From NCBI GenBank assembly GCA_002731275.1, contig PCBK01000132.1, positions 1-64,000 of the forward strand: a stretch of DNA of 64,000 nt, in the 5' to 3' direction. The notes under the pieces are model-generated. The model had not been told where the DNA came from. It ran no database searches and saw only the letters and a list, made by a program, of their open reading frames with translations. Every line of letters starts with the position of its first letter. Position 1 is the first letter of the stretch. The position numbers and the translations under genes were made by a program. Shown piece after piece: positions 34,219 to 38,118 of the stretch. This stretch comes from Deltaproteobacteria bacterium. GTDB lineage: Bacteria > Myxococcota_C > UBA6777.

Positions 34219-35163
34219 TTAGGGCTTTGTGTAGTGCATGATCTTCAAGCCTTTCTCCGGGTCGATATCCTCGAATGGAGGAGGTGGGAGCAAGCAACTC
34301 ACAGCGCGCCAATCCGGACATCCCTCCTGAAAACACGACTCGATAAATGACGTCCCCAAGTGTGTTGCGTTGAGGCAGGCGAGGACATCACACTGTTCTG
34401 CTGCCAGCGAAGGTAATCTGCGCACAACCCGCACATAGTCTTTTTCGGCGACAAAGCTCCCTCTCTGGCGTGTGGGGGGATCGATAATGATGATGTCGAA
34501 AGGTCCATATTTACGAAGTTTGGACCATGACTTGAAAATGTTGTGTTGGAGGAAGGTGACGTTGTCCAGCGACTGTGCGTTGTGTTGGTGATTGCGTCTA
34601 CCTGTTTGCAGTACATTCTTGTTCATATCGATGTTGACGATGGACGTTGCTTCAGCCGCGTGGGCAACGACTGAAAATGCACAGGTGTAAGAGAAGAGAT
34701 TCAACACACGCTTGCCTTTTGCCCGCGCTTTGAGCCAACTCCGTCCGTACTCCATATCCAAAAACAATCCGATATTCTGCGAGCGTCCGAATTGAATATG
34801 AAATCCCAAGCTGTCTTCGATCGCGACGGGATGCTCTGGAAATTGCCCAAAGAGTAGATGTGTTGGTGTCCCTTGTTCTCCCCTCATCTGTAACAACCCG
34901 TTTTGCAACACACACGGCGTTGGCAGCGCGCTGAATGTGTCACGTAGCGCCTCTGCCAGCTGTTGAATGTCATGCGTGTCGACAGGGTCGTATGAACGAA
35001 TCCATAGTGTCTCTCCATACTTGTCGATGCTCAAAAAGGACGCGTCTTCGATTTGGTGTCCTCGACCATGGAACAAACGTTGGGAGTGTTTAGGACGCTC
35101 TGTGATCTGTGTAAGGCATCGAGAGATGATCGTGTCTTGAAGTGAGGGGGGCAGTGAGTGCAT
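34219..35163 (-). CDS. Class I SAM methyltransferase, RlmI-like
   Basis: 314 residues. Resembles the 23S rRNA m5C methyltransferase RlmI family: GLFLDMEYGR (their FLDxR signature), motif I VLNLFSYTCAFSV, a post-I acidic NIDMNKN, and motif IV IIIDPPTRQRG. The N-terminal PUA domain typical of RlmI is shorter here, so target and base are unproven. It is the gene immediately before the tRNA-like array (516 bp away), on the other strand, which makes a tRNA/rRNA target worth considering but not shown. Confidence 0.8.
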   Translation of the reverse strand: MHSLPPSLQDTIISRCLTQITERPKHSQRLFHGRGHQIEDASFLSIDKYGETLWIRSYDPVDTHDIQQLAEALRDTFSALPTPCVLQNGLLQMRGEQGTPTHLLFGQFPEHPVAIEDSLGFHIQFGRSQNIGLFLDMEYGRSWLKARAKGKRVLNLFSYTCAFSVVAHAAEATSIVNIDMNKNVLQTGRRNHQHNAQSLDNVTFLQHNIFKSWSKLRKYGPFDIIIIDPPTRQRGSFVAEKDYVRVVRRLPSLAAEQCDVLACLNATHLGTSFIESCFQEGCPDWRAVSCLLPPPPFEDIDPEKGLKIMHYTKP

Positions 35164-35681: not shown

Positions 35682-35752
35682 CACGATGTGATGTAAGGGC
35701 AGCATAGGGGTCTCATAAACCCTTCGTGCGGGTTCGACTCCCGCCATCGTGA
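35682..35752 (+). tRNA. tRNA-like unit 1 (class A), anticodon CAT
   Basis: 71 nt. Acceptor CACGATG/CATCGTG is fully paired; anticodon stem GGGGT/ACCCT with loop CTCATAA (CAT at 35714-35716); T stem GCGGG/CCCGC; discriminator A. Met or Ile2 by anticodon, Gly by body length. Confidence 0.75.
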
Positions 35753-35756
35753 CGAT

Positions 35757-35827
35757 TGCGATATGGTGTAAGGGTAGCACGGAAGCCTCATAAGCTTCAG
35801 GATCGGGTTCAACTCCTGATATCGCCT
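35757..35827 (+). tRNA. tRNA-like unit 2 (class B), anticodon CAT
   Basis: 71 nt. Acceptor TGCGATA/TATCGCC: six pairs plus a T1-C72 mismatch; anticodon stem GAAGC/GCTTC, loop CTCATAA (CAT 35789-35791); T stem TCGGG/CCTGA with one G-T; discriminator T as in tRNA-Gly. Confidence 0.75.
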
Positions 35828-35841
35828 GAAAAACAAGTGAC

Positions 35842-35912
35842 TGCGACATGGTGTAAGGGTAGCACAGGAGGCTCATATCCTCCAAGAGCGGGTTCGACTC
35901 CCGCTGTCGCCT
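35842..35912 (+). tRNA. tRNA-like unit 3 (class B), anticodon CAT
   Basis: 71 nt. Acceptor TGCGACA/TGTCGCC with T1-C72 mismatch; anticodon stem GGAGG/CCTCC, loop CTCATAT (CAT 35874-35876); T stem GCGGG/CCCGC. Confidence 0.75.
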
Positions 35913-35925
35913 TTTTGTCGGTGAC

Positions 35926-35996
35926 TGCGATGTGGTGTAAGGGTAGCACGCGAGGCTCATAACCTTGAGGAGAAGGTTCGACTCCTTCCATCGCTT
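35926..35996 (+). tRNA. tRNA-like unit 4 (class B), anticodon CAT
   Basis: 71 nt. Acceptor TGCGATG/CATCGCT with T1-T72 mismatch; anticodon stem CGAGG/CCTTG (one G-T), loop CTCATAA (CAT 35958-35960); T stem GAAGG/CCTTC. Confidence 0.7.
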
Positions 35997-36006
35997 GGAT
36001 GTATTA

Positions 36007-36075
36007 CACGACGTGATGTAATGGCAGCATGGAGGCTCTTAAGCCTTCGAGCAGGTTCGAATCCTGCCGTCGTGT
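36007..36075 (+). tRNA. tRNA-like unit 5 (class A), deviant anticodon loop
   Basis: 69 nt. Acceptor CACGACG/CGTCGTG and T stem GCAGG/CCTGC are perfect, but the anticodon arm is two bases short: stem GGAGGC/GCCTTC leaves a six-base loop TCTTAA, so no standard anticodon (nearest reading CTT). Probably a non-decoding member or a decaying copy. Confidence 0.55.
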
Positions 36076-36079
36076 CGAC

Positions 36080-36150
36080 TGCGACATGGTGTAAGGGTAG
36101 CACGGAAGCCTCATAAGCTTCAGGGTCAGGTTCAACTCCTGATGTCGCCT
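36080..36150 (+). tRNA. tRNA-like unit 6 (class B), anticodon CAT
   Basis: 71 nt. Acceptor TGCGACA/TGTCGCC with T1-C72 mismatch; anticodon stem GAAGC/GCTTC, loop CTCATAA (CAT 36112-36114); T stem TCAGG/CCTGA fully paired. Confidence 0.75.
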
Positions 36151-36162
36151 TTTATCAGTGAC

Positions 36163-36233
36163 TGCGATGTGGTGTAAGGGTAGCACACGAGGCTCATAAC
36201 CTCGGAGAGAAGGTTCGACTCCTTCCATCGCCT
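36163..36233 (+). tRNA. tRNA-like unit 7 (class B), anticodon CAT
   Basis: 71 nt. Acceptor TGCGATG/CATCGCC with T1-C72 mismatch; anticodon stem CGAGG/CCTCG, loop CTCATAA (CAT 36195-36197); T stem GAAGG/CCTTC. All internal stems perfect. Confidence 0.75.
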
Positions 36234-36255
36234 GAGAAGATAGTGAATCGATATA

Positions 36256-36326
36256 CACGGTGAGGTGTTGTGGGAACATAGGAGGCACATTTCCTCCTGT
36301 CGCAGGTTCGACTCCTGCCATCGTGA
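36256..36326 (+). tRNA. tRNA-like unit 8 (class A), anticodon CAT with A33
   Basis: 71 nt. Acceptor CACGGTG/CATCGTG (one G-T); D arm differs from all others (GTGT, loop TGTGGGA, ACAT); anticodon stem GGAGG/CCTCC, loop CACATTT: CAT at 36288-36290 but A instead of the near-universal T at position 33. The most divergent unit. Confidence 0.6.
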
Positions 36327-36330
36327 CGAC

Positions 36331-36401
36331 TACGATGTGATGTAAAGGCAGCATAGGGGCCTCATAAGCCCTTCGTGCGGGTTCGACTCCCGCCATCGTG
36401 A
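36331..36401 (+). tRNA. tRNA-like unit 9 (class A), anticodon CAT
   Basis: 71 nt, duplicate of unit 1 with four differences. Two of them change the last anticodon-stem pair from T-A to C-G together (GGGGC/GCCCT), a compensatory change. Position 1 is T (T-G wobble with 72). CAT at 36363-36365. Confidence 0.75.
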
Positions 36402-36405
36402 CGAT

Positions 36406-36476
36406 TGCGATATGGTGTAAGGGTAGCACGGAAGCCTCATAAGCTTCAGGAGCGGGTTCAACTCCTGATATCGCCT
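36406..36476 (+). tRNA. tRNA-like unit 10 (class B), anticodon CAT
   Basis: 71 nt, duplicate of unit 2 with one difference, which breaks the first T-stem pair (G-A). T1-C72 mismatch retained. CAT at 36438-36440. Confidence 0.7.
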
Positions 36477-36490
36477 GAAAAACAAGTGAC

Positions 36491-36561
36491 TGCGACATGG
36501 TGTAAGGGTAGCACAGGAGGCTCATATCCTCCAGGAGTGGGTTCGACTCCCGCTGTCGCCT
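36491..36561 (+). tRNA. tRNA-like unit 11 (class B), anticodon CAT
   Basis: 71 nt, duplicate of unit 3 with two differences (one turns a T-stem C-G into T-G). Loop CTCATAT, CAT at 36523-36525. Ends 3 bp before the stop codon of the convergent caspase-like gene; no terminator between them. Confidence 0.75.
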
Positions 36562-36564
36562 GAA

Positions 36565-38118
36565 TTAGATCCAGGTCTCGTGGATCGTTTGTGGATCGAG
36601 GTTCCACAAGCCGTTGAGGAGGGGGAGAAGGTCTTGTCCTTCTTGTGTGGGGTTTTCTTGCAATGTATTGCGGAACAAGTCGATTTTTTCCAGCGCTTCG
36701 CTTCGTGAGAGCTGCTCAAAGTCCGGGGTTTTTAATCCAAGTGATGAAAAACCACTTGCGATTTTATCGGCGTGAGCGTCATGAAAGCGATGTCTGATGT
36801 GTGAGTTGTAGTAAAGCCCACGGATCGTTTGGTCTCTTCGTTCTTCCAGTGCCGTACGTTCTTCTGTCGTCAATTCGGGGTGTTGAAGGGCGTCTTGGAT
36901 TTGGTTGTAGTATTCGCGAAGTGGTCCACGTTGGCTACTTACGACCTCTTCTTGTCCAAGGAAGAATGACTGGAATGTACTCTCACCAGCCTCAATTCCT
37001 TGTCGAACTGTTTCGATATCAGGGCCTTCAAAGGCGACTTTCTGTTCGTATGTTGAGACGTCGAGATTGTTGGCTTTTCTGATCCCTCGGCGTTGGAGAC
37101 TCTGCATCGCTGGCTCGACTGTCCCTTCGCCTCTTGTGGCTTTTTCCCAGGATGTTTGGTGGATCGTGGCACCACTTCCTGTCCCTGGCGCTGAGCCACT
37201 GTATGCCCAGATTGTCTTGATATTTGGGAACATCCCTTGGAACATATCTCGTTTTGATTGCCCCCCTGAGTAACATGCCGAGAGGTGAAGGTCTTCGACT
37301 TGGGAAGCCGCGTTGGGCATGGCTTTGGCGAGGTCACCGAGCGCGTCCCATGAGAGGCGTCCGTTTCCATCTCCCCATACGGCTGAACCCACGTGGTGTC
37401 CGGAGACGACCATTCGTGAAGGAATGGATTCACCTTTCTCACCTTTGGCCCAAACTTGTGCGATTTGTGCCATCTCGTCACGTCCATCACGATCCGTCTT
37501 TTTCAACACATCTGCGATCTGTTGACTTTGTTCTGCTGGCAAGCCGAGTGTTCCAACAAATCCGCTCCGACCATCTTCTGTTGTGAGGTCGTATGTCTCA
37601 CCACCTACACGGATTTTGTCGTCCCCAATCTTCGAATCGGTGATCGCCTTGATGTTCGCGCCACTTTTTCCGAGCTCACGGATCTCGTGTTTGGCACCAG
37701 CACTGTATTTGGTCTCATTGCCCATGCCGACAAACAAAATGTCATCGTTTCCGGATGCTGATGGGGTTGGTGGATCATTTTTCGAAGGGATATCTTGCAA
37801 GCTATCTTTCTGGAGGAGCATACCGAGAACTGTCGCCGTTTTGCCTGCTCTTGTTGCGACTTGTTGACCTTGAGCGTCTGTCGTTGTCGCGACGAGACTT
37901 GCGCGTCGACCGTCTCTGTCAAAGTGGTCAGCTGCCCAGAAGGCTTCTTTGGCTTCCAGTACACCGTCTGCGTTGAGATCCGAGCGGCGAAGACGATCCA
38001 TGCTCACGCCGGCTTCTCTCATCTGTGCTCTCGCCTCAGCGTCTCCCTCAAGTTTGTCGAGATCGATCTTTCTTCCTGCTTGTTCTGCGACAAAATGTCG
38101 TCGGTGTAGTTTGGTCAT
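36565..38118 (-). CDS. Caspase-like protein with N-terminal EF-hand
   Basis: 517 residues. An EF-hand loop is readable at 47-58 (D-L-N-A-D-G-V-L-E-A-K-E) with a second weaker one after DRDG (about 67-70). The centre (about 125-330) has a caspase/clostripain-type His-Cys pair: VVSGHHVG (His 241/242) after a hydrophobic strand and LHLSACYSGG (Cys 282) after the next strand, 40 residues apart as in that fold. The C-terminal 170 residues are helical. No signal peptide. The fold call rests on these two motifs only. Its 3' end abuts the tRNA-like array; upstream lies a repeat-rich stretch. Confidence 0.65.
   Translation of the reverse strand: MTKLHRRHFVAEQAGRKIDLDKLEGDAEARAQMREAGVSMDRLRRSDLNADGVLEAKEAFWAADHFDRDGRRASLVATTTDAQGQQVATRAGKTATVLGMLLQKDSLQDIPSKNDPPTPSASGNDDILFVGMGNETKYSAGAKHEIRELGKSGANIKAITDSKIGDDKIRVGGETYDLTTEDGRSGFVGTLGLPAEQSQQIADVLKKTDRDGRDEMAQIAQVWAKGEKGESIPSRMVVSGHHVGSAVWGDGNGRLSWDALGDLAKAMPNAASQVEDLHLSACYSGGQSKRDMFQGMFPNIKTIWAYSGSAPGTGSGATIHQTSWEKATRGEGTVEPAMQSLQRRGIRKANNLDVSTYEQKVAFEGPDIETVRQGIEAGESTFQSFFLGQEEVVSSQRGPLREYYNQIQDALQHPELTTEERTALEERRDQTIRGLYYNSHIRHRFHDAHADKIASGFSSLGLKTPDFEQLSRSEALEKIDLFRNTLQENPTQEGQDLLPLLNGLWNLDPQTIHETWI

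What the first reader, a model, noticed from the sequence alone, without database searches (positions are those of the whole stretch)
35682..36561. Array of eleven short tRNA-like genes, ten reading CAT
Seen directly: eleven 69-71 nt units that all fold as cloverleafs with a Gly-type short D arm, TTCRANY T loops and no encoded CCA; ten have CAT where the anticodon should be, inside a CTCATAA-like loop. Known: bacteria normally carry only a few CAU tRNAs (initiator, elongator Met, Ile2), with longer bodies. Ten divergent CAU-type genes with a non-Met body is outside that. Inference: they may feed a non-ribosomal use of Met/Ile-tRNA, act as decoys for an anticodon nuclease, or be substrates of a nearby enzyme. 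Mere decay is unlikely because stems covary.
Basis: partly seen in the sequence, partly recalled or inferred. Interest (0 to 1): 0.9.

Follow-up and report, generated by a model that had tools for sequence, protein, structure and literature searches.

The report
Ten-copy virus-type methionine tRNA array
A large-genomed, uncultured bacterium carries eleven small tRNA genes in a row, ten of them with the methionine anticodon CAU; they are well-preserved tRNAs of a type usually seen in viruses, seven have an acceptor end like the tRNA that starts proteins, and why so many are kept is unknown.

Summary
Window 35682-36561 (+) contains eleven tRNA genes in one 71-nt frame. Ten carry CAT; unit 5 has a 6-nt loop (TCTTAA), and unit 8 has A33 and a poor D arm. 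Structure is under selection: 96.1% of stem cells pair, covariation is 0.51 against 0.24 in shuffles, and recent duplicates show two compensatory double changes (P 0.008).
The array is absent from the four other genomes held of this phylum. Among 385 other genomes no comparable run of CAU genes appeared (pattern search; at most two adjacencies, against six here).
The short body is not itself new. It is a common virus-borne CAU tRNA type, and the units group with viral CAU tRNAs rather than the host's own Met genes. Seven units have an unpaired 1-72 with G2-C71, C3-G70 and G4-C69, the main formylation determinants, but lack A73, R11-Y24 and the GGG/CCC anticodon stem.
Best reading: laterally acquired virus-type CAU tRNA genes, expanded by segmental tandem duplication and kept as auxiliary Met/fMet-type tRNAs. 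Whether they feed translation, buffer tRNA-depleting toxins, or do nothing is not settled. No VapC/PIN or PrrC/RloC-type gene was found in the genome; expression is unproven.

The parts
35682..35752 (+). unit 1 (type A): CAT, C1-G72, A73
35757..35827 (+). unit 2 (type B): CAT, T1.C72 mismatch, G2-C71/C3-G70/G4-C69, T73
35842..35912 (+). unit 3 (type C): CAT, T1.C72 mismatch, T73
35926..35996 (+). unit 4 (type D): CAT, T1.T72 mismatch, T73; 25-nt anticodon/variable stretch identical to a viral CAU tRNA (L158)
36007..36075 (+). unit 5 (type A relative): no CAT, 6-nt anticodon loop TCTTAA, C1-G72, T73
36080..36150 (+). unit 6 (type B): CAT, T1.C72 mismatch, compensatory 6-67 change relative to unit 2
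36163..36233 (+). unit 7 (type D): CAT, T1.C72 mismatch, T73
36256..36326 (+). unit 8 (most divergent): CAT but A33, degenerate D arm, C1-G72, A73; below Rfam gathering score
36331..36401 (+). unit 9 (type A, duplicate of unit 1): CAT, T1.G72, A73; compensatory 31-39 change
36406..36476 (+). unit 10 (type B, duplicate of unit 2): CAT, T1.C72 mismatch, T73; stem pair 49-65 broken
36491..36561 (+). unit 11 (type C, duplicate of unit 3): CAT, T1.C72 mismatch, T73
35682..35912 (+). segment A-B-C, duplicated at 36331-36561 with identical spacers (7 differences in 213 unit bases)
34219..35163 (-). left neighbour: SAM-dependent methyltransferase (PF10672), divergent from the array
36565..38118 (-). 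right neighbour: 517-aa protein with no Pfam match, ending 4 nt from unit 11 and convergent; conserved in relatives without the array

Best explanation
The array is a set of real tRNA genes of the virus-borne, short-D-arm CAU type, obtained by lateral transfer into the chromosome and multiplied there by segmental tandem duplication (A-B-C-D / A-B-D-E / A-B-C). Shown: cloverleaf structure maintained during and after duplication, CAU kept in ten of eleven, restriction to this one genome, similarity to viral CAU tRNAs. Inferred: the genes are transcribed, trimmed, given CCA and charged with Met (the CAU anticodon suffices for E. coli MetRS), so they form an auxiliary Met-tRNA pool added to a complete canonical set. 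The seven units with an unpaired 1-72 and G2-C71/C3-G70/G4-C69 could also be formylated but should be poor initiators (no GGG/CCC stem) and poor EF-Tu substrates. The most plausible advantage is dosage: buffering Met/fMet-type tRNA against depletion, including by tRNA-attacking toxins of phages or competitors.
For: Structure and covariation. In recent duplicates 1 pair changes status against 4.3 expected (P 0.044), with 2 compensatory double changes against 0.15 expected (P 0.008). Viral CAU tRNAs are the best-scoring non-array relatives: up to 74.6 bits, against 67.9 at best in 385 other genomes; tree and identity searches agree. Unique in phylum; no comparable array among 385 genomes. Canonical initiator and other CAU tRNAs present elsewhere in the genome. 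Formylation and MetRS determinants from PMC9976931. Amplification of a tRNA segment as protection against tRNA cleavage is documented in phage T6 (PMC13096335).
Against: No expression data; no sigma-70-like promoter or terminator found near the array. T73 and an A15.A48 contact in the mismatch class may impair charging or folding. Units 5 and 8 show decay. Met (2.2% of codons) and AUA (7% of Ile) usage in the window is ordinary, so no codon demand is visible. No phage genes nearby. The viral loci were fetched with a pattern taken from the array, which biases the nearest-relative comparison.
Confidence: 0.45

Rival explanations
1. Decoys: the units are not mainly for translation but soak up an anticodon nuclease, acetylase or other toxin that attacks initiator-type CAU tRNA (VapC-like), delivered by phages, plasmids or competitors.
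For: Seven units copy the initiator acceptor end but lack A73, R11-Y24 and GGG/CCC, so they resemble initiator tRNA without being good initiators; the anticodon loop CTCATAA/T is conserved in nine of ten CAT units; initiator tRNA is a known VapC target and phage tRNAs are proposed to counter such enzymes (PMC4105405; PMC10264068).
Against: No PIN/VapC or AAA_13 anticodon nuclease found in this genome; no defence gene cluster beside the array; PMC10264068 argues that phage tRNAs escape cleavage by loop changes and avoid tRNA-fMet, the reverse of a decoy.
Confidence: 0.2
2. Relic: tRNA genes from a lost virus or mobile element, duplicated by chance and drifting slowly, with no present function.
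For: No promoter-like site; units 5, 8 and 10 carry damage; restricted to one genome.
Against: Outside pair 1-72 only two stem cells fail in the gapped alignment, one of them from the alignment of unit 5; compensatory changes occur even among recent duplicates (small numbers).
Confidence: 0.22
3. A dedicated pool of Met-tRNA or fMet-tRNA for a non-ribosomal reaction: the mismatch class is weak for EF-Tu and for initiation and so diverted to an enzyme that uses aminoacyl-tRNA.
For: The mismatch class lacks features wanted for both elongation and initiation; tRNAs specialised outside translation are known for Gly in staphylococci (own knowledge).
Against: No aminoacyl-tRNA-using enzyme in the neighbourhood; no CDPS match in the genome, though that search had no positive control.
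Confidence: 0.06
4. Extra Ile2-type tRNAs: C34 is converted to lysidine and the array boosts AUA decoding.
For: CAU is also the gene-level anticodon of tRNA-Ile2.
Against: AUA is only 58 of 832 Ile codons in the window's long genes; the mismatch class with T73 fits Ile identity poorly (own knowledge).
Confidence: 0.04

Closest known systems
Virus-borne short-D-arm CAU tRNA genes (GTGTAAnGGTAGCAY...CTCATAA)
   Same: Body length, D arm, anticodon loop, AGGA variable loop; many have an unpaired 1-72 and G2-C71/C3-G70 acceptor.
   Different: In viruses one to a few CAU genes per locus, mostly A73 and often GGG/CCC stems; here ten, mostly T73, none with GGG/CCC, in a chromosome-like setting without phage genes.
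tRNA array units (Tran et al. 2016 definition, as given in PMC5966550)
   Same: Dense tRNA genes in a row, redundant with the main set, similar types in phages and chromosomes.
   Different: Eleven genes, below the 20-gene definition; one anticodon instead of many isotypes.
Bacterial initiator tRNA-fMet
   Same: CAU, unpaired 1-72 with G2-C71, C3-G70, G4-C69 in seven units.
   Different: No A73 in those units, U11-A24 instead of R11-Y24, no three G-C pairs in the anticodon stem, short D loop.
SegB-driven amplification of phage T6 tRNA-Tyr against Septu (PMC13096335)
   Same: Segmental tandem multiplication of a tRNA-bearing stretch.
   Different: Bacterial genome, diverged copies, no homing endonuclease seen nearby.

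Membership tests
tRNA gene (Rfam RF00005) | score above gathering cut-off with full cloverleaf | tested here: met
   10 of 11 units at 43.9-58.8 bits against 29; unit 8 below the cut-off though found by ARAGORN
tRNA gene (Rfam RF00005) | expressed, CCA-added, charged | not testable with these tools
   no RNA data
Bacterial initiator tRNA-fMet | unpaired 1-72 with G2-C71, C3-G70, G4-C69 | tested here: inconclusive
   met in 7 of 11 units, not in units 1, 5, 8, 9
Bacterial initiator tRNA-fMet | A73 and R11-Y24 | tested here: not met
   mismatch class has T73; all units have U11-A24
Bacterial initiator tRNA-fMet | three consecutive G-C pairs (29-31 with 39-41) | tested here: not met
   no unit has GGG/CCC; the genome's own initiator does
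Virus-borne short CAU tRNA | GTGTAA-type short D arm with CTCATAA loop, grouping with viral CAU tRNAs | tested here: met
   support moderate (83/95), single origin not rejected (p-AU 0.48)
tRNA array unit | at least 20 tRNA genes at 2 or more per kb | tested here: not met
   11 genes in 0.88 kb; definition
Prophage or phage tRNA cluster | lies among phage genes | tested here: not met
   none of the ten tested genes around the array resembles a phage gene in Pfam

The most novel reading that the evidence does not exclude
A bacterium has domesticated virus-type initiator-like CAU tRNAs as a multi-copy decoy or reservoir: formylatable but non-initiating, non-elongating tRNAs that protect the initiator tRNA pool from toxins or feed a non-ribosomal use of fMet-tRNA.
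Probability: 0.18. Interest if true: 0.85.

Novelty: new variant of a known kind. Interest (0 to 1): 0.52.

Why it matters
tRNA-targeting toxins and phage tRNAs that counter them are an active field, but a bacterial genome holding ten structure-conserved virus-type CAU tRNAs in one array has no counterpart in the collections searched here. If the mismatch class is charged and formylated but excluded from the ribosome, it would be a natural test of whether bacteria keep sacrificial or reserve initiator-like tRNAs.

Tried and rejected
Phage (36 records with weak, partial matches) and plasmid (1) DNA searches found no similar array; E. coli none. Resident VapC/PIN: none in this genome although relatives have them. 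AAA_13 (PrrC/RloC type): none. CDPS: none, search uninformative because no control rang. Conserved synteny with the 517-aa gene: neither the array nor other tested window genes found beside the orthologue in two relatives; its profile finds nothing useful in the PDB. PADLOC: only generic kinase hits and a weak methyltransferase hit. Altered genetic code: TAA, TGA and TAG are all used as stops. Assembly-edge artefact: the array lies mid-contig (36 kb into 71 kb).

Full report
Observation. ARAGORN finds eleven tRNA genes in the 64-kb window, all at 35682-36561 on the + strand. Rfam's tRNA model matches ten of them above its gathering score. All fit one 71-nt frame with a 7-bp acceptor, 4-bp D stem with 7-nt loop, 5-bp anticodon stem, 4-nt variable loop and 5-bp T stem; unit 5 is 69 nt. 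Ten have CAT at the anticodon. Unit 8 has A33 and a poor D arm; unit 5 has a 6-nt loop TCTTAA.

Two acceptor classes. Units 1, 5, 8 and 9 have C1-G72 (T1.G72 in unit 9) with A2-T71; A73 in three and T73 in unit 5. Units 2, 3, 4, 6, 7, 10 and 11 have T1 facing C72 or T72, then G2-C71, C3-G70, G4-C69, and T73. The unpaired 1-72 with these three pairs is the main formylation signal of bacterial initiator tRNA, with A73 as a minor determinant and R11-Y24 also named (PMC9976931). The array units have U11-A24 and no GGG/CCC anticodon stem, so they are initiator-like at the acceptor end only. The genome's own initiator, on another contig, has T1.T72, A73, GGG/CCC and an encoded CCA.

History. By similarity the order is A-B-C-D / A-B-D-E / A-B-C. 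Units 1-3 and 9-11 are a recent duplicate segment with identical spacers. Across the five closest pairs of copies there are 16 differences, 10 in stem positions; one base pair changes status (4.3 expected, P 0.044) and two base pairs changed on both sides with pairing kept (0.15 expected, P 0.008) (small numbers, and two of the pairs share unit 2). Over all units 96.1% of stem cells pair; excluding pair 1-72, two cells fail. Eleven pairs show double changes, and the covariation score is 0.51 against 0.24 in shuffles and at most 0.17 in slid controls. Structure has been selected; the between-type part of that signal may predate arrival in this genome.

Distribution. The genome is 10.75 Mb in 200 contigs and its phylum holds only four other genomes here; none has the array. 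A pattern for two neighbouring CTCATA-loop tRNAs gives six adjacencies in the array and at most two in any of 385 other genomes, where those that are tRNAs are ordinary pairs such as initiator plus elongator. In viral contigs the longest run was three different CAU tRNAs, although that scan was truncated.

Origin. The short-D-arm CAU body is common in viral contigs (89 stretches for one strict pattern). Closest non-array sequences by identity are viral CAU tRNAs; unit 4 shares a 25-nt identical anticodon-variable stretch with L158. A covariance model of the units scores up to 74.6 bits on viral CAU tRNAs and 67.9 at best in the 385 genomes, where the best hits are Met and Gln tRNAs. In a 60-row tree the array falls inside the viral CAU group, apart from the host initiators; one origin is not rejected (71 columns, moderate support). 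The viral loci were chosen by a pattern from the array, so lateral origin is likely, not proven. A further CAU gene, at C108:8553 beside a gene with CTA in the anticodon loop, falls near units 1, 5 and 9 in the tree.

Surroundings. Left is a PF10672 methyltransferase, right a 517-aa protein with no Pfam match, both on the minus strand; further genes encode kinases, LRR, acyltransferase and ABC1-kinase proteins. The 517-aa gene has relatives at 60, 55 and 50% identity in two family genomes and a Schekmanbacteria MAG, none with tRNA genes in the DNA scanned around them, and no other tested window gene lies beside it in the two family genomes. Nothing ties the array to a neighbour. No promoter or terminator consensus was seen, which is weak evidence.

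Function. Ten CAU genes are redundant with a canonical set. Codon usage shows no special need for Met or AUA. CAU alone allows efficient charging by E. coli MetRS, so a Met-tRNA pool is the simplest working role. The mismatch class could be formylated but should enter neither initiation nor elongation well (inference from known determinants). That makes a buffer or decoy against toxins that attack initiator tRNA attractive, and phage T6 provides a precedent for tRNA multiplication under attack by a tRNA nuclease (PMC13096335). Against it, this genome has no detected PIN or AAA_13 nuclease. The mechanism remains inference.

Verdict. Real, unusual, structurally constrained; a new variant of known virus-type tRNAs arranged in a copy number not met elsewhere in what was searched; function open.

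Noticed in passing
G000:C41:46150-46871 (L009 2151-2872), G000:C81:25789-25906 (L038 790-907), G002:C201 (L341 1466-1576), G004:C152 (L342 1451-1565): tRNA genes of about 111-120 nt with an insert in the anticodon region that shares a hairpin motif GTGnGYTTTGTAsAAARCnCCwCAGCAmY; five copies in this genome and related copies in two relatives. No Rfam intron family matched; possibly an undescribed tRNA intron type. Deserves its own study.
   Followed up: partly
G000:C108:8553-8726 (L045 554-727): A CAU tRNA followed by a tRNA-like gene with loop CTCTAGA (anticodon CTA, amber-suppressor-like).
   Followed up: partly
G000:C5:45742-45815 (L034 743-818): tRNA with anticodon TTA (would read UAA), 64 bits, although TAA is the commonest stop codon in the window's long genes.
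   Followed up: no
G000:C65:108-1308, C200:28337-29011, C98:7851-8131, C3:242648-243295: Further dense tRNA clusters, many genes of short type, among chromosomal genes, including six Ser tRNAs in a row with three GCT; 103 tRNA matches in this genome against 49-66 in relatives.
   Followed up: partly
window 36565-38118 (-): 517-aa protein with EF-hand-like motifs and a SGHH...SACYSG pattern suggestive (by eye) of a caspase-fold cysteine peptidase; no Pfam or PDB match.
   Followed up: partly
G002:C138:88465-88867: Three nearly identical tRNA genes, similar in score to the initiators of relatives, spaced about 160-170 bp apart; anticodon not read.
   Followed up: no
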